DNA of 37,549 nt from Bacteroidia bacterium. GTDB taxonomy: Bacteria; Bacteroidota; Bacteroidia; Bacteroidales; JAPLDU01. Shown here one piece after another: positions 25 through 37,549 of the stretch. The notes below the pieces were generated by a model. The model saw nothing but the letters and a program-made list of their open reading frames with translations. It ran no database searches and had not been told where the DNA came from. The stretch covers positions 22,441-59,989 of the forward strand of contig JAPLDU010000002.1 in the NCBI GenBank assembly GCA_026391255.1. The letters are read 5' to 3'. Numbering within the stretch: the stretch's first letter is position 1; each line of letters opens with the position of its first letter. Both the position numbers and the translations under genes were made by a program.

Positions 25-204
25 AATATTATTTTTATATTTACTCATTTTAAACCTCCCCTGACCCCATCCTGAATAAGGAGGGAAATTTTCATTCTTC
101 TTTTTCTGTGATTCTCTGCATAAACTAAAATCCAATTACACTCCAACTTTATAGCTTTATATCTTTATGACTTTATGAACTTTACAAACTTTATAACTCA
201 ATTA
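1..204. repeat. Copy A of a ~200-bp duplicated block (gene start plus intergenic spacer)
   Basis: Positions 1-204 align with 2680-2880. The block holds the start of one TPR gene, the spacer and the stop-codon end of the next. Outside a hairpin-like core (55-92 here, 2734-2767 in the other copy) I see only a few differences, such as one base in the stretch before 141. The core is rebuilt: CCTCC...GGAGG arms with different loops. The spacer ends in a CTTTAT-type array with units at 147, 155, 163, 171, 180 and 189. The block is more conserved than the coding repeats on either side. Confidence 0.85.
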
Positions 205-11187: not shown

Positions 11188-11742
11188 TTATTTTAAATAT
11201 ATACTTTTTAGTTCATTAAGCAAATGATGATATTCTTCATGTTTGCCTATACCTATCTTTTCTATTTCCAGTTTTTCAAAAGCATTATATATTTTGGATT
11301 GTTCCTCTTCATTCAGCACCTTATCAGCCATCATAAACAGAATATTGTTTTCTTTTTCTATATGATTTCTCAGGAGCTGAACATAATTTCTGGAACTTGA
11401 AATAATATTACTTATTGCTGACTTATTTCCTCCTTTAAATTCTTCAAATGCATTACTCAATGATTTTATATGACCCCTGCCCACCTGATGTTCATAAAGC
11501 ATTACTGCAATTGGTCCTCCTTCATTAGGTATTCCATGATCTACCAATGCAGGGAAAAAAATATCCTCTTCTTTACCATGGTGGCATTTATCGGCAAACC
11601 CTCTGATGAAATCAATTATTTTCTCAAAATGAACAATATTCAGTTCATCACCGGTTTCAATACCAGTGTAAATTTTTTCCATAATATTCAGCATAAGTTT
11701 TATGCCTTCATGTTCATCTTTTAATTGTTGTGTTGCTTTCAT
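11188..11742 (-). CDS. Hemerythrin-like (HHE) protein
   Basis: 184 residues forming the four-helix HHE-type diiron domain. Candidate iron ligands are H11 (LKDEHEGI), H38, H54/H55 with E58/E59 (CHHGKEED), H85 and H91 (YEHQVGRGH), and H127 with E131 (NHIEKEN). There is no signal peptide, so it is cytosolic. It starts only 19 bp after the stop of the NO-reductase gene, so the two are almost certainly cotranscribed. In NO-reductase loci, hemerythrin-like proteins are commonly linked to binding O2 or NO, or to repair of nitrosylated iron centres (family knowledge). Which of these applies here is inference. Confidence 0.88.
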   Translation of the reverse strand: MKATQQLKDEHEGIKLMLNIMEKIYTGIETGDELNIVHFEKIIDFIRGFADKCHHGKEEDIFFPALVDHGIPNEGGPIAVMLYEHQVGRGHIKSLSNAFEEFKGGNKSAISNIISSSRNYVQLLRNHIEKENNILFMMADKVLNEEEQSKIYNAFEKLEIEKIGIGKHEEYHHLLNELKSIYLK

Positions 11743-11761
11743 TTCATTATCCTCCGATATA

Positions 11762-14023
11762 TTACTGATTTTCTTTTTGTTCTTTATTAATTGACCATCC
11801 GGTTTTTAGCCCGATAACAAACCATGCAAGTGCCAATGCGCCTAAGCTGAAAATGGTATCACCTATGATTCTTAACCAACGAAGTGTTTGTAAGGTGGGA
11901 TTCTGCATAAATTCTGCAGAACGTGCAAACCACATTCCATGTTTAATACATGCGATAGTCTGTAATATTCCCACTGGCAGGATACTTATCAGTACCATGA
12001 GTAAGAGTCCTATGTTAATGGTCCAGAATGCAAAACTGATCACATTATTTTTCCACTCATATTTGCGTGTTAAACCTTTAAGTACAAAAAGCATTAACCC
12101 GATTCCAAGCATACCATAGACTCCGAATAAAGATGTATGAGCATGAACAGGAGTTGTATTTAGTCCCTGCATATAATATAAAGCAATGGGAGGATTGATA
12201 AGAAACCCGAAAAGACCGGCACCCACAAGATTCCAGAAGCTTACGGAAATTAAAAAATAGATTGGCCATTTATATGTTTTTACCCATTGCGTAGCCCTGC
12301 TGATTTTTAAATTATGATAAGCTTCAAAGCCCATCAGAATGAGGGGAACCACTTCGAGTGCGCTAAAGGATGCACCAAGCGCAATCACCGCTGTGGGAGT
12401 ACCGGTGAAGTACAAATGATGGAAAGTTCCTATTATTCCTCCACTCAGATAAACTATGGTAGCAAACAATACACCGGAAGTTGCATATTTAATATTCAGC
12501 AATCCCATCCTTACAAAAAGGAAAGCAGCAATAACGGTAGCAAATACTTCGAAGAAACCTTCCACCCAAAGGTGTACCACCCACCATCTCCAATATTCTG
12601 CTATTGACAGATGAGTTTGTTGACCCCACATCAGACCGGCTCCGTAAAACCCTGCAATGGCAATGGATGAAATAACGAACATGGTCAGCAACTGCCTGTT
12701 TTCAGAAGGTTGTTTTATGGCGGGTAATAAAGCACGGAACATAAGAATCAGCCAGATGATTAAACCAATAAAAAGAAACAATTGCCAGAATCTGCCAAGG
12801 TCGACATACTCGTATCCCTGGTGGCCGAACCAGAAATTCTGTGCAAGTCCGAGTTTCTGCATAATACCCATCCATTCGCCTGCAAGTGATCCAACAACAA
12901 TAATAAGCAAAGCAATAAAAAGAAAATTCACTCCTAACTTTTGATATTTCGGTTCTACGCCTGATACGGCGGGCGCTATATAAAGACCTGTAGCCAGCCA
13001 TGAAGTCGCAATCCAGAATATTGCTAATTGCAGATGCCAGGTCCGCGATACGGAATAAGGAAGAATTGTATCCAGTTTTAAACCATAAAAGCCCTTGCCT
13101 TCTACACCGTAGTGTGCCGTAATCACTCCTAATAAAACCTGAACAAGAATAAGAGCAGTAACAACCCAAAAATATTTTAAGGTAGCTTTCATAGAAGCGG
13201 TAGGATTAAGACCAATTAACGGATCGTTCTGTGGCAGCAGCGAAACATCGAGCACACCTGATTTGTTACGCGCATGGTAATAAGCCAGCAAACCAACTCC
13301 AACAAGAAGCATGATGACACTAAAACCCGTCCAGAGAATTATTCCCGGTGATGGTACATTGCCGACTTTTTCATCGGGGGGCCAGTTATTTGTATAAGTC
13401 AGATCCGAACCTGGCCTGTTGGTAATGCAGGCCCAGGCTGCCCAGAAAAAAAATGCATTCATATCCCGCATCCGTATTGAGTCTTTAATAGAATTTGCAG
13501 GAATTGCATATGCCTGCCTTTCTTTTTCTAGAATCGGATCGTTCATAAATAGACTGCTATAATGTTTGCAATTACTTTGAATCGCTTTGGCTCTGTCATT
13601 TGATATTTTAATAAAACCCGTAATGTTGTCATAAGTATTTGTCCTTAAAGCATTCTGAAGTCTGATCTTAAGCATGGCTTGTTTTTCCGGGCTTAGTTTG
13701 TCAAAAGAGGATGCAAAATCATTTATTGCCCATTTATTTATAAGAAAATCGGATTCCTTATGCAACCAGTCAGCTGACCAGTCGGGTGCAACATACGCAC
13801 CATGCCCCCATACTGTGCCTACTTCCTGTCCGCCAATTGACTGCCAGACATTCTGACCATCCTGAATATCCTTGGCTGTGAACAGAACTATACCATCTTC
13901 GGTGATTACTTTAACCGGTACCGGTGGTTTCTCATTATATATCTCATGGCCATAAAAGCCAAGGATTGAAAAGCAAATTACAAGAATTGCTATAAAACTG
14001 ATCCAGAGGTTTTTTGTTTTCAT
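11762..14023 (-). CDS. norZ: Quinol-dependent nitric oxide reductase (qNOR)
   Basis: 753 residues, the length of qNOR: an N-terminal extension of about 220 residues (one TM, then a periplasmic cytochrome-c-like fold with no CxxCH motif) fused to a 12-TM NorB domain. All metal ligands can be placed: H330 and H629 for low-spin heme b, H627 for heme b3, and H484, H535 and H536 for the non-heme FeB. The two glutamates special to NORs are present: E488, four residues after H484, and E557, twenty-one after H536. The lysine/tyrosine pattern of a proton-pumping oxidase is absent. It reduces 2 NO to N2O using quinol at the inner membrane. No other denitrification gene is nearby, so detoxification of NO is the likely role. 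It leads a two-gene operon with a hemerythrin-like protein. Confidence 0.95.
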   Translation of the reverse strand: MKTKNLWISFIAILVICFSILGFYGHEIYNEKPPVPVKVITEDGIVLFTAKDIQDGQNVWQSIGGQEVGTVWGHGAYVAPDWSADWLHKESDFLINKWAINDFASSFDKLSPEKQAMLKIRLQNALRTNTYDNITGFIKISNDRAKAIQSNCKHYSSLFMNDPILEKERQAYAIPANSIKDSIRMRDMNAFFFWAAWACITNRPGSDLTYTNNWPPDEKVGNVPSPGIILWTGFSVIMLLVGVGLLAYYHARNKSGVLDVSLLPQNDPLIGLNPTASMKATLKYFWVVTALILVQVLLGVITAHYGVEGKGFYGLKLDTILPYSVSRTWHLQLAIFWIATSWLATGLYIAPAVSGVEPKYQKLGVNFLFIALLIIVVGSLAGEWMGIMQKLGLAQNFWFGHQGYEYVDLGRFWQLFLFIGLIIWLILMFRALLPAIKQPSENRQLLTMFVISSIAIAGFYGAGLMWGQQTHLSIAEYWRWWVVHLWVEGFFEVFATVIAAFLFVRMGLLNIKYATSGVLFATIVYLSGGIIGTFHHLYFTGTPTAVIALGASFSALEVVPLILMGFEAYHNLKISRATQWVKTYKWPIYFLISVSFWNLVGAGLFGFLINPPIALYYMQGLNTTPVHAHTSLFGVYGMLGIGLMLFVLKGLTRKYEWKNNVISFAFWTINIGLLLMVLISILPVGILQTIACIKHGMWFARSAEFMQNPTLQTLRWLRIIGDTIFSLGALALAWFVIGLKTGWSINKEQKENQ

Positions 14024-14626: not shown

Positions 14627-15388
14627 TTATAATGAAATGGAATACCCGATGGCTATTAATAAATAACCATTATGGCTTTCACCTTCCTGTTTATCTTTCT
14701 GATCAGTAGTCAATCCATAGGCTCCGCGAACATCGAGAAAAATATTACCGGGACCGGCTTCCTGCATAAATCCGATACCCCCCGTCAGTCCGAAATTAAA
14801 TGGTTTGATACTGCTCGTTACATCTGAAGAGGCATCAAACGATTGGGCAGTTTCAACCACCGGCATTGTCTCAGCCCTATCGGCATAAATAATACTTGAT
14901 CCACTGGTCTTTTGTTTAGCATTCAACAAAAATCCGAAATATGGTCCAAAATCTATATAAAACTTTGATTTTTCCCCTGTTGAAATGGAATATTTCAGCA
15001 TAACAGGAATCTCGGCATAGTTCAGAATAGATTCATTATTAAAATCAGCATAAAGGTATGTCCCGGCAGGCGCCTGCGGGTTAAATGATGAGGCATCAAT
15101 GGCCTGTAGCCCATTTCTTTTTCCGCCTTCGCTGGAATACAATGCATCGGCACGCAAAACAAGACCAGATCCCAAATAACAGGAAGCTGTCAAACCAAAA
15201 GCTTCGCCCAAACGCGAAGTATAATCACGACTCATCTCATTGTTATTGCCACCACTGAGCTGGGGTATATTTAATCCTCCAAAGATACCCAGGGTAAATT
15301 TAGCTCCATTCTGTTCAGATTGAGTTTGTGCAAATAAAATGGCTGACAGACAGATAAAAACAAATGTGGTTACAAATAATTTTCTCAT
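14627..15388 (-). CDS. Outer-membrane beta-barrel protein (PorT/OMP_b-brl family type)
   Basis: 253 residues with a signal peptide ending ILFAQ. The remainder alternates amphipathic strands and loops, as in the roughly 8-stranded Bacteroidota 'outer membrane protein beta-barrel' family: FTLGIFGGLNIPQLSG, AFGLTASCYLGSGLVLRADALYSSEGG, YAEIPVMLKYS, FYIDFGPYFGFLLNAK, FNFGLTGGIGFMQEAG, NIFLDVRGAYGLT, and a final GYLLIAIGYSISL ending in a hydrophobic residue. The exact function is unknown; members act as small porins or as assembly factors. It is a single gene, flanked upstream by the heptamer array at 15535-15870, which lies between it and the divergent cytochrome operon. Confidence 0.8.
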   Translation of the reverse strand: MRKLFVTTFVFICLSAILFAQTQSEQNGAKFTLGIFGGLNIPQLSGGNNNEMSRDYTSRLGEAFGLTASCYLGSGLVLRADALYSSEGGKRNGLQAIDASSFNPQAPAGTYLYADFNNESILNYAEIPVMLKYSISTGEKSKFYIDFGPYFGFLLNAKQKTSGSSIIYADRAETMPVVETAQSFDASSDVTSSIKPFNFGLTGGIGFMQEAGPGNIFLDVRGAYGLTTDQKDKQEGESHNGYLLIAIGYSISL

Positions 15389-15534: not shown

Positions 15535-15870
15535 GAGTGATGAGTGATGACTTACGACTTACGACTTACGACTTATGAGTTACGACTTACGACTTACGAC
15601 TTACGAGTTACGACTTATGAGTTATGAGTTACGACTTACGACTTACGACTTACGAGTTACGACTTATGAGTTACGACTTACGACTTACGAGTTACGACTT
15701 ATGAGTTACGACTTACGACTTACGACTTACGACTTACGACTTATGAGTTACGAGTTACGACTTATGAGTTACGACTTACGACTTATAACTTATGACTTAT
15801 AACTTATGACTTATAACTTATAACTTATGACTTATGACTTATGACTTATGACTTATGACTTATGACTTAT
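15535..15870. repeat. Heptanucleotide tandem array, 48 units in perfect phase
   Basis: 336 bases divide into exactly 48 heptamers with no insertion or deletion; I checked the phase at every 60-base line. The first two units are GAGTGAT, and the rest follow [G/A]A[C/G]TTA[C/T]. The left part mixes GACTTAC, GACTTAT, GAGTTAC and GAGTTAT; the right quarter (from about 15782) uses only GACTTAT and AACTTAT. Seven is not a multiple of three, so the open frame across it is a by-product. It lies in the divergent intergenic region between the outer-membrane barrel gene and the cytochrome operon. Confidence 0.95.
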
Positions 15871-16021
15871 GACTTCAAGCCAGACAACCTGATTAATTGA
15901 AGATTTTAATCAGTGATCAGATTATTATTATTTTAAAATATCATCAGTTAAAAATGAAAGAAAAATATATTTTTACAGAAATATTTCAAATGAATACAAG
16001 AATAATGTTAAATATGAGAAT

Positions 16022-17383
16022 ATGAAAATATTAGTACAATTAAAAAGGGATGGAATCTCATACTGCACCATGAATAGTACTGAAACCAGTAGTGTTTTAG
16101 TCTGTCTCAGGAAACTGTTCATTCTGAACCTTGCATTGATGGTGAATATTGGCCTGATCAAAGCATTACCCAGTTATGCCAGGCAAACGGGAATGTCATG
16201 TACTGCATGCCATACTTCATTTCCGGAACTTACCTCCCTGGGCAGACAATTTAAACTCAATGGTTATACTATGACGGGTATGCAGACCATTGAATCCAAA
16301 GAGGACAGTGACCGTGTGACCAGGCTGAAACTGCTCAGTACATTACCCTTATCGGCAATGTTTCAATCATCATTCACGAATATTGCAAAAGATGTCATAA
16401 GCACTCAGAATAATTCAGTTTCTTTTCCACAACAGTTTAGTTTGTTCTTTGCAGGGCAGGTAACCCCGCACATAGGAACCTTTATTCAAATGACATATGA
16501 TGGTCATACTTTTGGTATGGATAATGCCGATATCAGGTTCTCCAACCAGGCAAGTATAGGGACCAGGAACCTGATTTACGGACTTACATTAAACAACAAT
16601 CCTTCAGTGCAGGATGTCTGGAATACTTTACCGGCATGGAGGTTTCCCTCATCATCGTCGGATGCAGCACCTACCCCTGCTAAATCAACCATCATGGAAA
16701 ACCTGAGTACCCAGGTGGCCGGATTAGGGGCATACACTTTATTTAACAACTTATTGTTTGCAGAATTGACAGTTTACAGGTCGGCACAACAAGGGGCTCC
16801 CAATCCGGCAGACTCATCAAGTACAATGACAATAGACGGTATAGCGCCATACTGGCGACTGGCATTACAACACCAATGGGCCGATAATTATTTTGAACTT
16901 GGCACATTCGGAATTGCTTCAAAACACTTTTTACATGGTATATCCGGTAATATGAACAAATTTACTGATGTCGGATTTGATTTCCAGTATGAACGGAGAT
17001 TAACTTTTGGATCATTCGCCCTGCACAGTTCACTTATTAACGAGACTGAAACCATAGATACTTCAACTACTCAACATATCAATTTAAATTTTCACTCTTT
17101 TAAAGTGGATGGGAGTCTTTATCTGAACAAAGGTCTCGGTGCAACCATTGGTTATTTTGCCACAACAGGTTCAGAAGATGCATCAGTCGGAAGTGTCACC
17201 AACAAACCAAACAGCAATGGCATTATCTTACAGCTTGAATATTTACCCTGGTACAATACCAAATTTACCATACAATACGTTATGTACAATAAATTTGACG
17301 GGGGTACCGGTAATTATGATGGTTTTGGCAGAAAAGCAGCCAACAATAATACCCTTTATATTTTAGCCTGGCTTAATTTTTAA
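16022..17383 (+). CDS. Fused monoheme cytochrome c / outer-membrane porin (Cyc2-like architecture)
   Basis: 453 residues. After a hydrophobic export segment (about 30-48) comes ARQTGMSCTACH (C60, C63, H64), one c-type heme site, followed by TSFPELTSLGRQFKLNGYTMTG. The remaining roughly 370 residues are beta-barrel strands (FSLFFAGQVTPHIGTFIQMTYDG, YWRLALQHQWADNYFELGTFGIA, VGFDFQYERRLTFGSFALHSSL, KFTIQYVMYNKFDGG) and end in LYILAWLNF, with the terminal aromatic expected of an outer-membrane barrel. A single N-terminal heme joined to a porin is the design of the Fe(II) oxidase Cyc2, though other such fusions have unknown electron donors. Start is uncertain: 16022, or MNSTETSS at 16070, which gives a shorter leader before the signal helix. 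It is 24 bp upstream of a cytochrome c gene. Confidence 0.75.
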   Translation: MKILVQLKRDGISYCTMNSTETSSVLVCLRKLFILNLALMVNIGLIKALPSYARQTGMSCTACHTSFPELTSLGRQFKLNGYTMTGMQTIESKEDSDRVTRLKLLSTLPLSAMFQSSFTNIAKDVISTQNNSVSFPQQFSLFFAGQVTPHIGTFIQMTYDGHTFGMDNADIRFSNQASIGTRNLIYGLTLNNNPSVQDVWNTLPAWRFPSSSSDAAPTPAKSTIMENLSTQVAGLGAYTLFNNLLFAELTVYRSAQQGAPNPADSSSTMTIDGIAPYWRLALQHQWADNYFELGTFGIASKHFLHGISGNMNKFTDVGFDFQYERRLTFGSFALHSSLINETETIDTSTTQHINLNFHSFKVDGSLYLNKGLGATIGYFATTGSEDASVGSVTNKPNSNGIILQLEYLPWYNTKFTIQYVMYNKFDGGTGNYDGFGRKAANNNTLYILAWLNF

Positions 17384-21840: not shown

Positions 21841-22887
21841 ATGAATTATCTCAGATTTGCCGGTTTATTGGTAATTGCCCTTGTTTTATACTCATGTAAA
21901 AAAGATGTAAAAGAACAAAATGCAAAAAAGGGAATTCCCCCAGTGATCGTAGACGTGATGATTGCCGGAGATGTAGATTTTCCATCAAACATTCAGGTAA
22001 ATGGGACAGTGCTATCGGAGGAAATGATAGAAATGCATCCTGAAATCAGCGGTCGCATCACTTTGCTGAATATCCCCGACGGGGCAACGGTCACGGCTGG
22101 TACGGTACTTGCAAAGATCAACGATGCTGACTTACAGGCTCAGATGGAACAGCAGAAAGTACAGAAGGATCTTGCGGAAAAAACAGAACAACGCCTGAAA
22201 AAATTGCTCGATGTCAACGGCGTGGATCAGGCAACTTATGATGCAGCTTTAAGCCAGTTAAACTTATATGATGCTAATATCAAGGTTTTACAGGCACAAA
22301 TAGATAAAACCGTTATCAAAGCGCCGTTTAACGGACGATTGGGATTACGGCTGGTGAGCGAAGGAGCCTATGTAACCCCTTCAACCCTGATCGGAACTTT
22401 GCAGCAGACAGATAAGATTAAAATCGATTTCACGGTTCCTGAGACTTACGAAAACCTTTTGAGCATTGGAAAAACGGTCACTATTCAAACCACAGGTTCA
22501 AAGGAAAATCGTACTGCAGTCATCAGCGCTATTGAACCACAGATTAACACGGTGACCAGAAACATTAAAGTGAGGGCAAGACTGGAAAACTCAAACATCC
22601 GGCCCGGTGCATTTGTAAAAGTGCTGCTCAATGAAACGGGGAAAAGAATTGTAGTTCCTTCCAACGTAATCATTCCCGATGCATTATCCAACCAGGTAGT
22701 GGTCGTTAAAAAAGGCAAAGCTACCTTCAGGAATGTGGAAACCGGGACCAGAAATTCAGATGTTGTGGAAATCACCAACGGTCTTAATCCCGGCGATACT
22801 GTGGTAGTAAGCGGCGTTCTGTTTGTCCGCCCCAATGCCCGAGTCAAAATACGTAAAGTAATCAGTATGACTGGGGCAAAGCAGTGA
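21841..22887 (+). CDS. RND efflux periplasmic adaptor (membrane fusion) lipoprotein
   Basis: 348 residues, normal for the AcrA/MexE family. Lipobox VLYSC puts the acylated cysteine at C19. The order is typical: a first beta-barrel strand pair, a split lipoyl half (GRITLLNIPDGATVTAGTVLAKIND), a short coiled-coil hairpin (about 98-145), the second lipoyl half (AQIDKTVIKAPFNGRLGLRLVSEGAYV), a beta-barrel domain and a membrane-proximal domain ending GDTVVVSGVLFVRPNARVKI. It bridges the inner-membrane RND pump and the TolC-like channel encoded downstream. Its stop codon overlaps the first unit of a heptamer array. Confidence 0.93.
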   Translation: MNYLRFAGLLVIALVLYSCKKDVKEQNAKKGIPPVIVDVMIAGDVDFPSNIQVNGTVLSEEMIEMHPEISGRITLLNIPDGATVTAGTVLAKINDADLQAQMEQQKVQKDLAEKTEQRLKKLLDVNGVDQATYDAALSQLNLYDANIKVLQAQIDKTVIKAPFNGRLGLRLVSEGAYVTPSTLIGTLQQTDKIKIDFTVPETYENLLSIGKTVTIQTTGSKENRTAVISAIEPQINTVTRNIKVRARLENSNIRPGAFVKVLLNETGKRIVVPSNVIIPDALSNQVVVVKKGKATFRNVETGTRNSDVVEITNGLNPGDTVVVSGVLFVRPNARVKIRKVISMTGAKQ

Positions 22888-22934
22888 TGGGTAATGAGTG
22901 ATGAATTATGAGTGATGAGTGATGAGTGATGAGT
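22886..22934. repeat. Heptamer array GATGAGT (7 units)
   Basis: gatgggt, aatgagt, gatgaat, tatgagt and then gatgagt x3 run in perfect phase, starting within the stop codon of the adaptor gene. It is the first of four distinct arrays in this 250-bp spacer. The word equals the first two units (GAGTGAT rotated) of the 15535-15870 array. Confidence 0.9.
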
Positions 22935-35166: not shown

Positions 35167-37549
35167 ATGAAAAAAATTATTTTTTCAATAGTTGTTTGTA
35201 TTATAATTATTAATGCAATTAAAGCAACCAATTTCACAGTGACAATTGTAAATTTTACCTATTCGCCGGCACTGACAACTGTCAATGTAGGAGATGTGGT
35301 CACCATCGATGCCAGTACTTTGCATCCTCTTGTACAGGTAAGCGCTGCAACATGGAATGCAAACCTGGCAACACCGTTACCGGGAGGCTGGGGAGTGAAA
35401 ACGTCAAATTATACTTTTACAATTACCACCACCGATACGATATATTTTGTATGTCAGAATCATGTAAGCATAGGAATGAAAGGAAGGATAGTTGTAAGTG
35501 TACCTAATTCCCCGCCGGTATTTACTTCAACACCTGTAACAACGGGCACACAAGGAATAGTCTATACTTATAATATTACTTGTTCAGATCCCAATGTCGG
35601 TAATACGCTGACTATTACATGTCCCACAAAGCCTTCCTGGCTGACATTTACTGCGACAGGCAGCACGGCAGTGCTGACAGGCACTCCGGGTGCAGGAAAT
35701 GTTGGTAACAATTCCGTGGTACTTCAGGTCACTGATGGTATTGCTTCACCGGTACAGCAATCATTTACCATAGTAGTTGCAGCCAATTCTCCACCCTCGT
35801 TCACATCCACACCGGTAACATCTGCTACACAAAGCCTGGTGTACACTTATAATATCACTTGTTCAGATCCGAATGTCGGGAATGTGCTGACAATAACCTG
35901 CCCGACAAAGCCTTCCTGGCTGACATTTACACCAAGTGGAAGTACAGCAGTACTGACAGGTACCCCGGGTGCAGGAAATGTCGGCAACAATTCCGTGGTG
36001 CTCCAGGTTACTGACGGTATAGCAACCCCGGTGCAACAGTCATTTACCATTGTGGTAATTGCTGAAAACCCACCATCATTCACTTCTTCCCCTGTAACAG
36101 CCGGCACACAAGGAATAGTCTACACATATAATGTCACCTGTACTGATCCTGATGCGGGAAATACGCTTACCATTACATGCCCGACCAAACCTTCCTGGCT
36201 GACATTTACACCAACCGGAAGCACGGCAACGCTTACCGGCACTCCGGGAGCTGGCAATGTTGGAAATAATTCCGTGGTGCTCCAGGTAACTGATGGTATT
36301 GTATCACCGGTACAGCAATCATTCACCATAGTAGTCGCAGCCAATTCTCCACCCCAGTTTACATCATCTCCTGTAACAAATGCCACACAAAGCCTGGTTT
36401 ACACTTATAATATCACTTGTTCAGATCCGAATGTCGGTAATGTTCTGACTATAACCTGCCCCACAAAGCCTTCCTGGCTGACATTTACACCAAGTGGAAG
36501 CACAGCAGTACTTACCGGTACACCGGGTGCAGGCAATGTTGGGAACAATTCTGTAGTGCTGCAGGTCACTGATGGTATTGCAACACCTGTAATGCAATCA
36601 TTTACAATAGTTGTGGTAGCAGCAAACCAGCCATCATTCACAACCACCCCGGTAACAACCGGAACTCAGGGTGTTTCATATACGTACAATATTACATGTA
36701 CTGATCCTGATGTTGGCAATGTACTCACCATTACCTGCCCGACAAAGCCTTCGTGGCTGACATTTACATCAACCGGAAGCACGGCAGTGCTTACGGGCAC
36801 TCCGGGTGCTGGAAATGTAGGAAGCAATCCGGTAGTTCTGCAAGTTACTGATGGAATAACATTGCCTGTTCAACAATCATTTACCATAGTTGTTGCAGCG
36901 GATAATCCTCCTTCATTCACATCCACTCCAATAACAACCGGCACACAAGGTATAGTCTATACTTACAATATTTCCTGTACTGATCCTGATGTGGGCAATG
37001 TGCTGACCATTACCTGCCCCACAAAGCCTTCCTGGCTGACATTTACACCAAGCGGAAGCACAGCAGTACTCACAGGTACACCGGGTGCAGGCAATGTTGG
37101 TAATAATTCCGTGGTACTCCAGGTAACTGACGGTATAGCAACCCCGGTGCAACAATCATTTACCATTGTTGTAACAGCAGAAAATCCTCCATCATTTACA
37201 TCTACCCCAATAACAACGGGCACACAAGGAATAATCTATACCTATAATATAACTTGTACTGATCCTGATGCTGGCAATACACTGACCATTACCTGCCCGA
37301 CCAGGCCTTCCTGGCTTACATTTACACCATCAGGAAGCACGGCAACGCTTACAGGCACGCCCGGAGCAGGTAATGTTGGTAATAATTCCGTGGTGGTCCA
37401 GGTCACTGACGGTATCGCAACGCCTGTGCAACAATCATTTACCATTGTGGTAACAGCAGAAAATCCTCCATCATTTACATCGACCCCAATAACAGCGGGC
37501 ACACAAGGAATAGTCTACACATATAATATTTCATGTACTGATCCTGATG
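35167..37549 (+). CDS. Large cupredoxin protein with tandem He_PIG-like repeats (partial, runs off right edge)
   Basis: At least 794 residues are open to the window end. MKKIIFSIVVCIIIINAIKA is a signal peptide. A cupredoxin domain with ligands H53, C96, H99 and M104 follows (LHPLVQVSAATWN; FVCQNHVSIGMKG), paralogous to the preceding gene. From residue 116 on come 93-residue repeats resembling the putative-Ig He_PIG family (PPxFTSTPVTTGTQGIVYTYNI, LTITCPTKPSWLTF, GTPGAGNVGNNSVVLQVTDGIAxPVQQSFTIVV), each with a cysteine pair that may form a disulfide. The C-terminus, perhaps with a T9SS domain, is outside the window. It is probably a surface fibre or adhesin carrying copper. Minus-strand open frames across the repeats are not genes. 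Confidence 0.88.
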   Translation, partial: MKKIIFSIVVCIIIINAIKATNFTVTIVNFTYSPALTTVNVGDVVTIDASTLHPLVQVSAATWNANLATPLPGGWGVKTSNYTFTITTTDTIYFVCQNHVSIGMKGRIVVSVPNSPPVFTSTPVTTGTQGIVYTYNITCSDPNVGNTLTITCPTKPSWLTFTATGSTAVLTGTPGAGNVGNNSVVLQVTDGIASPVQQSFTIVVAANSPPSFTSTPVTSATQSLVYTYNITCSDPNVGNVLTITCPTKPSWLTFTPSGSTAVLTGTPGAGNVGNNSVVLQVTDGIATPVQQSFTIVVIAENPPSFTSSPVTAGTQGIVYTYNVTCTDPDAGNTLTITCPTKPSWLTFTPTGSTATLTGTPGAGNVGNNSVVLQVTDGIVSPVQQSFTIVVAANSPPQFTSSPVTNATQSLVYTYNITCSDPNVGNVLTITCPTKPSWLTFTPSGSTAVLTGTPGAGNVGNNSVVLQVTDGIATPVMQSFTIVVVAANQPSFTTTPVTTGTQGVSYTYNITCTDPDVGNVLTITCPTKPSWLTFTSTGSTAVLTGTPGAGNVGSNPVVLQVTDGITLPVQQSFTIVVAADNPPSFTSTPITTGTQGIVYTYNISCTDPDVGNVLTITCPTKPSWLTFTPSGSTAVLTGTPGAGNVGNNSVVLQVTDGIATPVQQSFTIVVTAENPPSFTSTPITTGTQGIIYTYNITCTDPDAGNTLTITCPTRPSWLTFTPSGSTATLTGTPGAGNVGNNSVVVQVTDGIATPVQQSFTIVVTAENPPSFTSTPITAGTQGIVYTYNISCTDPD
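35512..37549 (+). repeat. Tandem 279-bp coding repeats (7 complete, an 8th cut by the edge)
   Basis: Units begin at 35512, 35791, 36070, 36349, 36628, 36907, 37186 and 37465, each exactly 279 bases after the last. Codons differ mostly at third positions and at a few residues (NVGN/DAGN, TPSGS/TPTGS, ITCSDPN/VTCTDPD), so the array has been kept the same length. Recombination between units, and assembly collapse or expansion, are both possible. Confidence 0.95.

What the first reader, a model, noticed from the sequence alone, without database searches (positions are those of the whole stretch)
15535..15870. A 48-unit heptanucleotide array with no indels
Exactly 336 bases form 48 heptamers built from about five permitted words, with zonation: mixed GACTTAC/GAGTTAY on the left, only [GA]ACTTAT on the right. 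Simple replication slippage usually leaves identical units or phase breaks. Here the words vary but the phase never does. It resembles the heptanucleotide STRRs known in heterocystous cyanobacteria but uses a different word. It separates two divergent genes for outer-membrane proteins, so copy number could affect promoter spacing.
Basis: seen in the sequence. Interest (0 to 1): 0.75.

Follow-up and report, generated by a model that had tools for sequence, protein, structure and literature searches.

The report
Polar seven-base repeat array between genes
A stretch of 48 seven-letter DNA words between two bacterial genes is real, and it is the longest one found of many short-repeat tracts in this genome that follow a simple rule, seen in distant bacteria too: G-bearing words come first and C-bearing words last, read along either DNA strand.

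Summary
The array is real: 15535-15870, 48 heptamers in one unbroken phase, 46 of them RASTTAY, plus two GAGTGAT at the left. It is not unique. The same genome (an uncultured Bacteroidales, sole held member of its family) has 476 exact three-unit RASTTAY matches against 0 for a reversed control. About 75 arrays were read; none lies inside a called gene. Arrays of this word also occur in Cyanobacteria, Gammaproteobacteria, Chloroflexi and others.

In this genome's intergenic 7-9-mer tracts, G-biased words lie at the left and C-biased words at the right on either strand (357 tracts, rho -0.45, p 4e-19; unselected replicate of 125, rho -0.57, p 3e-12). The rule does not depend on gene direction, is absent from repeat-free spacers and recurs in other phyla (47 G-to-C adjacent tract pairs, 0 C-to-G). 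Published Xanthomonas GGGAATC heptamers show the same convergent layout, so the kind is known; the generality appears new.

Most likely this is slippage- and repair-grown intergenic DNA with an intrinsic 5'-G to C-3' polarity, not a promoter-spacing switch. Copy-number variation could not be tested.

The parts
15535..15548 (+). two GAGTGAT units, left edge of the array (C-free words)
   Evidence: GAGTGAT lies left of RASTTAY cores in 14 loci vs right in 1
15549..15779 (+). left zone: 33 units mixing GACTTAC, GACTTAT, GAGTTAC and GAGTTAT, with block duplications of about six units
15780..15870 (+). right zone: 13 units of only GACTTAT/AACTTAT
15871..15877 (+). degraded last unit GACTTCA
14627..15388 (-). 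left divergent gene, outer-membrane beta-barrel protein (OMP_b-brl_2), 253 aa; its start codon is about 147 nt from the array
   Evidence: Pfam PF13568 E 5e-22; distance
16022..17383 (+). right divergent gene, 453 aa, no Pfam/NCBIfam match, CxxCH motif near the N-terminus; its start codon is about 145 nt from the array
   Evidence: distance; motif read from the sequence
22883..22934 (+). second heptamer tract in the window, (AGTGATG)n with GAATTAT/GGTAATG variants, same word family

Best explanation
The array is the longest found member of a genome-wide population of intergenic tandem tracts of 7-9-base words. Shown: units are gained or lost whole and in multi-unit blocks, so phase is kept while point-mutated words spread locally. 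Shown: the population is polar; on either strand one meets G-biased (mostly C-free) words first and C-biased words last, and this array's GAGTGAT/GAGTTAY-left, RACTTAT-right zonation is an instance. Inferred: the arrays grow and turn over by slippage and end-primed repair synthesis in which 3' ends carrying G/T/A words are favoured (such words can fold back on themselves through G-T and A-T pairs, their complements cannot), so growth proceeds inward from both sides of a spacer and leaves a head-to-head layout. Inferred: the array is tolerated filler with variable length, not a dedicated regulatory switch; any effect on the two flanking promoters is incidental.
For: Whole-unit phase and block duplication. 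476 exact three-unit matches in the genome vs 0 for the reversed control. About 75 distinct arrays read (79 rows, of which L043, L072 and L081 are also listed on the other strand), none inside a called ORF, no bias to gene orientation. Polarity: 357 intergenic tracts, Spearman position vs GC skew -0.45, p 4e-19; adjacent tract pairs 137 vs 39; repeat-free spacers show none, 193 spacers, p 0.36. Replicate on 416 kb not chosen for this word: rho -0.57, p 3e-12; all four gene configurations significant when combined, including convergent (p 1e-8) and divergent (p 7e-4). Within arrays, GAGTTAY precedes GACTTAY in 16 of 16. RASTTAY arrays left-half minus right-half skew 49 vs 16, p 2e-5. Other species: G-to-C 47 pairs vs C-to-G 0, loci 59 vs 9; holds when neither tract is RASTTAY-like. 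Distances to the 5' and 3' neighbouring genes, medians 35 and 139 nt, match the 28 and 160 nt (averages) reported for Xanthomonas GGGAATC repeats (PMC4692102). + strand RNA folds far better than shuffles, z -11.7; - strand does not, z +2.0.
Against: The growth mechanism is not observed. The two arms in this genome usually carry different words (inverted 6-mer similarity 0.014 at gaps up to 30 nt, below shuffled 0.054), which speaks against simple fold-back copying. As single-stranded DNA neither strand of the window array folds better than shuffles (z -0.6 and -0.3). Arrays also share one strand per contig (89 same vs 16 opposite pairs) and their sense strand tends to be the negative-GC-skew strand (p 4e-4), which the model does not predict; no such preference was reported in Xanthomonas. 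The polarity can equally be stated as 'C-words upstream of genes, G-words downstream', so selection on transcripts is not excluded.
Confidence: 0.6

Rival explanations
1. Selection on transcripts: G-free (C-word) leaders are tolerated upstream of genes because they lack ATG and structure, and C-free words downstream; the arrays otherwise arise at random.
For: The polarity rule is geometrically the same as this gene-centred rule in all four gene configurations.
Against: Repeat-free spacers of the same genome show no gradient. Convergent spacers, with no leader, are as polar as others (rho -0.53) and divergent ones, with no trailer, are polar too.
Confidence: 0.15
2. Contingency locus: slippage changes the distance between two divergent promoters and switches the outer-membrane barrel and the CxxCH protein on or off.
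For: Divergent position about 145 nt from both start codons; surface protein on one side; repeat length far beyond slippage thresholds.
Against: Sister arrays lie in all configurations without bias. No copy-number data. The only TAnnTTT promoter-like sites (partial matches to the Bacteroidota -7 motif TAnnTTTG, recalled from general knowledge) lie outside the array, so unit changes would alter only the distance between two promoters.
Confidence: 0.1
3. A dedicated element or enzyme inserts the repeats: a Y1/REP transposase, a telomerase-like reverse transcriptase such as DRT10, or end joining.
For: Four Y1 transposase genes in the genome; DRT10 shows bacteria can make tandem-repeat DNA (PMC12632851); head-to-head G-strand layout resembles fused telomeres; REP-like TCCGCCTNNGGCGGA palindromes sit a median 20 nt from tracts vs 733 for random positions.
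Against: No reverse transcriptase (PF00078) and no Ku (PF02735) found in a 97.5% complete genome. After masking tandem repeats, flanks of different arrays share only short stretches (54-65 bp at 78-81% identity at most, in a few pairs), so there is no common cassette.
Confidence: 0.08
4. Assembly artefact: a collapsed or wrongly extended array.
For: At least eight sister arrays are cut by contig ends, so arrays do break this assembly.
Against: Longest exact internal repeat is only 55 nt; unique flanks on both sides within one 60-kb contig; same word in dozens of other loci.
Confidence: 0.04

Closest known systems
GGGAATC / GGGGA(T/C)T heptamer repeats of Xanthomonas and Nostoc (Rehm et al. 2015, PMC4692102)
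   Same: Mostly intergenic heptamer arrays, dispersed, mixed words within a consensus, no fixed gene orientation; in Xanthomonas 70-75 pairs in convergent orientation, and close to the 5' neighbour (averages 28 vs 160 nt; medians here 35 vs 139).
   Different: Words here have no G-runs and cannot form G-quadruplexes. Tracts of 7, 8 and 9 bases mix in one spacer. Arrays here are co-oriented per contig, while none was seen relative to replication in Xanthomonas. Few paired repeats were reported in Nostoc PCC 7120.
TAACTGA direct repeats of Beggiatoaceae, Cyanobacteria and some Bacteroidetes (MacGregor 2015, PMC4679880)
   Same: Intergenic heptamer arrays, up to 43 copies in Bacteroidetes and Cyanobacteria, other heptamers in the same spacer; the word read on the other strand (rotation CAGTTAT) differs from GAGTTAT by one base.
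   Different: In Beggiatoaceae they sit just before start codons in one orientation and related words are rare as repeats; here no start-codon orientation and many related words.
Long simple sequence repeats of prokaryotes (Mrazek 2007, as cited in PMC4679880) and cyanobacterial STRRs
   Same: Over-represented heptanucleotide tandem repeats outside genes.
   Different: Those descriptions (read here only at second hand) give no G-to-C polarity.
DRT10 / telomerase (PMC12632851)
   Same: Makes tandem-repeat DNA; telomere repeats are C-free on the 3' strand, as the left-hand words mostly are here.
   Different: No reverse transcriptase detected in this genome.

Membership tests
Intergenic heptanucleotide SSR / LSSR / STRR | head-to-tail 7-base units, more than chance | tested here: met
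Intergenic heptanucleotide SSR / LSSR / STRR | many dispersed copies in one genome, outside genes | tested here: met
   476 three-unit matches; no array inside a called ORF of 70 codons or more
Intergenic heptanucleotide SSR / LSSR / STRR | copy number varies between strains | not testable with these tools
   no second strain; only genome of its family held; flanking 453-aa gene not found in 294 other genomes of the order at E 1e-30
Xanthomonas-type convergent heptamer repeats | G-strand arrays facing each other | tested here: met
   adjacent pairs G-to-C 36 vs C-to-G 11 in G000, 47 vs 0 in other species; at least some G000 exceptions are an unrelated inverted-repeat element
Xanthomonas-type convergent heptamer repeats | G-tracts able to form G-quadruplex | tested here: not met
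   RASTTAY units contain no G-run
Phase-variation contingency SSR | unit number changes expression of an adjacent gene | not testable with these tools
   needs strains or reporters
Phase-variation contingency SSR | consistent placement at promoters or in reading frames | tested here: not met
   sister arrays in all gene configurations
MITE / REPIN-type mobile cassette | shared flanks or termini between copies | tested here: not met
   masked flanks share only short stretches in a few pairs
Telomerase-like (DRT10) product | reverse transcriptase in the genome | tested here: not met
   PF00078 absent

The most novel reading that the evidence does not exclude
A word-independent process shared across bacterial phyla builds intergenic DNA by adding C-free short-word repeats to 3' ends from both sides of a spacer and joining them, giving head-to-head, telomere-fusion-like islands; the heptamer array is one arm-to-arm product.
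Probability: 0.13. Interest if true: 0.85.

Novelty: new variant of a known kind. Interest (0 to 1): 0.5.

Why it matters
Heptamer tandem repeats have been noted in scattered bacteria for decades without an accepted origin. A polarity rule that holds across words, periods and phyla, and in words that cannot form G-quadruplexes, points to a 5'-to-3'-directed growth process rather than to regulation or G4 structure. It makes the origin question testable by mutation-accumulation or long-read comparison.

Tried and rejected
Coding repeat: stops in all six frames of the array. Start-codon (Beggiatoa-type) or terminator role: no orientation bias to genes. Polar chromosome motif (AIMS/KOPS-like): isolated GACTTAY/GAGTTAY words in genes show no strand bias (49:61 and 39:42). 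Mobile cassette: no shared flanks beyond short stretches. Fold-back copy of one arm: arms carry different words in this genome. Reverse transcriptase or Ku-based addition: both families absent. Orthologous spacer in relatives: no ortholog of the 453-aa gene in 294 other genomes of the order. The word being special in the order: the reversed control word is found in more other Bacteroidales genomes than RASTTAY is, so RASTTAY abundance is specific to this genome.

Full report
OBSERVATION. The window array is exactly as described in place and phase: 48 heptamers from 15535 to 15870 with no indel, TRF period 7 with 0% indels, against a chance expectation of 0.01 three-unit matches in the window. 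Words: GACTTAC 16, GACTTAT 15, GAGTTAC 10, AACTTAT 4, GAGTTAT 1, and GAGTGAT 2 at the left edge. GAGTTAY is confined to the left 34 units; the last 13 units (15780-15870) are only GACTTAT/AACTTAT. Word order in the left zone repeats in blocks of about six units (lag 6 identity 0.50 vs 0.33, p 0.037; lag 12, p 0.02; not corrected for the 14 lags tried). The longest exact internal repeat is 55 nt, so assembly through it is plausible, but the unit number is unverified; at least eight sister arrays end at contig ends.

GENOMIC SETTING. That genome has 476 exact three-unit RASTTAY matches and none of the reversed control word. I read 79 array rows in fetched stretches (about 75 distinct arrays, because L043, L072 and L081 are listed on both strands): none lies inside an ORF of 70 codons or more, and they show no preference relative to gene direction (23 tandem-sense, 20 tandem-antisense, 12 divergent, 12 convergent, 12 at stretch edges). 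In a one-per-family sample of 118 other genomes of the order only six have any four-unit match, and twelve have the reversed control word, so the abundance of this word is specific to this genome. Yet seven-unit RASTTAY arrays turn up in Nostoc, Hassallia and Scytonema, Gammaproteobacteria, Chloroflexi, Lentisphaeria, Elusimicrobia, Patescibacteria and many Bacteroidota, so the word is not foreign to cyanobacteria.

ONE MEMBER OF A REPEAT-FILLED INTERGENIC LANDSCAPE. In 825 kb of stretches TRF finds 565 non-redundant tracts, mode at period 7 (147), then 8 (87) and 9 (36), with multiples. In 416 kb chosen without regard to this word the density is 0.53 tracts per kb. Neighbouring tracts use related words (GAATAGT, GAGTGAT, GARTTAY, GATTTAY, GACTTGT, RACTTAY, GACTATT, AACTTTATR), and on the RASTTAY sense strand several have fixed sides: GAGTGAT left in 14 loci vs right in 1, GAATTAY 32 vs 10, GACTTGT 9 vs 0, AACTTTAYR 0 vs 7.

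THE POLARITY RULE. GAGTTAY precedes GACTTAY in 16 of 16 arrays that hold both, and RASTTAY arrays have a more positive GC skew in the left half than in the right (49 vs 16, p 2e-5). More generally, across 357 intergenic 7-9-mer tracts GC skew falls with relative position in the spacer (rho -0.45, p 4e-19; mean +0.36 in the first fifth, -0.39 in the last), and adjacent tracts run left-skew over right-skew 137 to 39. Repeat-free spacers show nothing. The unselected replicate gives rho -0.57, p 3e-12, and combined data are significant for tandem, convergent and divergent gene pairs alike. Because G-left/C-right is unchanged by reverse complementing, this is a symmetric (dyad) rule: reading either strand 5' to 3', G words come first. 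In 115 loci from other species the class counts are 47 G-to-C and 0 C-to-G pairs, loci 59 vs 9, including Cyanobacteria 10:2 and assorted other non-Bacteroidota 7:0. The direction of the effect persists when neither tract is RASTTAY-like: 37:13 in other species, 44:17 in the unselected stretches of this genome. Several of the C-to-G exceptions in this genome belong to a dispersed inverted-repeat element that TRF picks up (AAATCACAAA...). These other-species loci were chosen for containing RASTTAY, so frequency estimates there are conditional; the direction of the rule is not.

STRAND BIAS. Arrays also share a strand within contigs (89 same vs 16 opposite pairs, 0 of 20,000 permutations as low), and after correcting for gene direction their sense strand is the negative GC-skew strand (30 contigs, Mann-Whitney p 4e-4). 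If the leading strand is G-rich, as is usual in bacteria (general knowledge, not tested here), the sense strand is the lagging one. Isolated words in genes show no such bias. This is unexplained and was not seen in Xanthomonas.

MECHANISM. Shown: whole-unit and block copying; intergenic restriction; dyad polarity; independence from gene direction. Inferred: polarity implies a 5'-to-3' process acting inward from both sides of a spacer, most simply repair or replication synthesis primed by 3' ends that carry G/T/A words. Such words can pair with themselves through G-T and A-T pairs whereas their complements cannot; the + strand as RNA folds at z -11.7 and the - strand at +2.0. That asymmetry is computed with RNA energies, repetitive sequence inflates z-scores, and as DNA neither strand folds better than shuffles, so this is only a pointer. 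Arms usually carry different words in this genome, against simple fold-back copying. No reverse transcriptase and no Ku were found; four Y1 transposases are present, but arrays share no common cassette: masked flanks match only over short stretches. Selection on leaders and trailers is the main rival; the lack of a gradient in repeat-free spacers and its presence in convergent and divergent spacers weigh against it.

COMPARISON. The closest described system is the GGGAATC heptamers of Xanthomonas (PMC4692102): intergenic, dispersed, 70-75 convergent pairs, and closer to the 5' than the 3' neighbour (averages 28 vs 160 nt; medians here 35 vs 139). TAACTGA repeats (PMC4679880), up to 43 copies in some Bacteroidetes and Cyanobacteria, are a one-base relative of GAGTTAT read on the other strand. 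So the kind is known. What I did not find described in the papers searched is the word-independent polarity across phyla in AT-rich words without G-runs, or zonation within single arrays as its expression. The literature search covered open-licence papers only, so this is not proof of novelty.

VERDICT. Real, not unique, not evidently regulatory; a long and clear example of a polar class of intergenic heptamer repeats whose origin is open and now testable.

Noticed in passing
window 145-198 and 2820-2873: Identical 8-base AACTTTAT tracts (54 nt) with near-identical flanks next to the 3' ends of two TPR-protein genes of 841 and 821 aa, likely a gene duplication that carried the repeat along.
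   Followed up: no
L207:16674, L208:6051, L215:13052 and others (about 100 motif hits in sampled stretches): A dispersed AT-rich inverted-repeat element (AAATCACAAATCTCAAAATACAAATAAC...GTTTTTTGTGATTTG), apparently about 170 nt and often next to ACGAGCCAGAACC; MITE-like, and with polarity opposite to the tandem tracts.
   Followed up: partly
G000 genome-wide, e.g. C66:74864, C29:38559: TCCGCCTNNGGCGGA palindromes (62 forward and 59 reverse matches, overlapping in part) lie a median 20 nt from the nearest tandem tract versus 733 nt for random positions; REP-like, and four Y1 transposases are present.
   Followed up: partly
G000, 30 contigs: RASTTAY arrays share one strand per contig and prefer the negative-GC-skew strand; unexplained by the polarity rule.
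   Followed up: partly
window 35536-37549: 279-bp tandem repeat, about 7 copies, running off the window end; probably a repeat-domain surface protein.
   Followed up: no
window 11188-14023: Quinol-type nitric oxide reductase (NorB-like) next to a hemerythrin protein, with cytochrome c genes beyond the array; a nitrosative-stress or respiration neighbourhood.
   Followed up: no
contig ends of C16, C27, C58, C68, C76, C91, C98, C129: RASTTAY arrays lie at contig ends, so this assembly truncates them and true array lengths are underestimated.
   Followed up: partly
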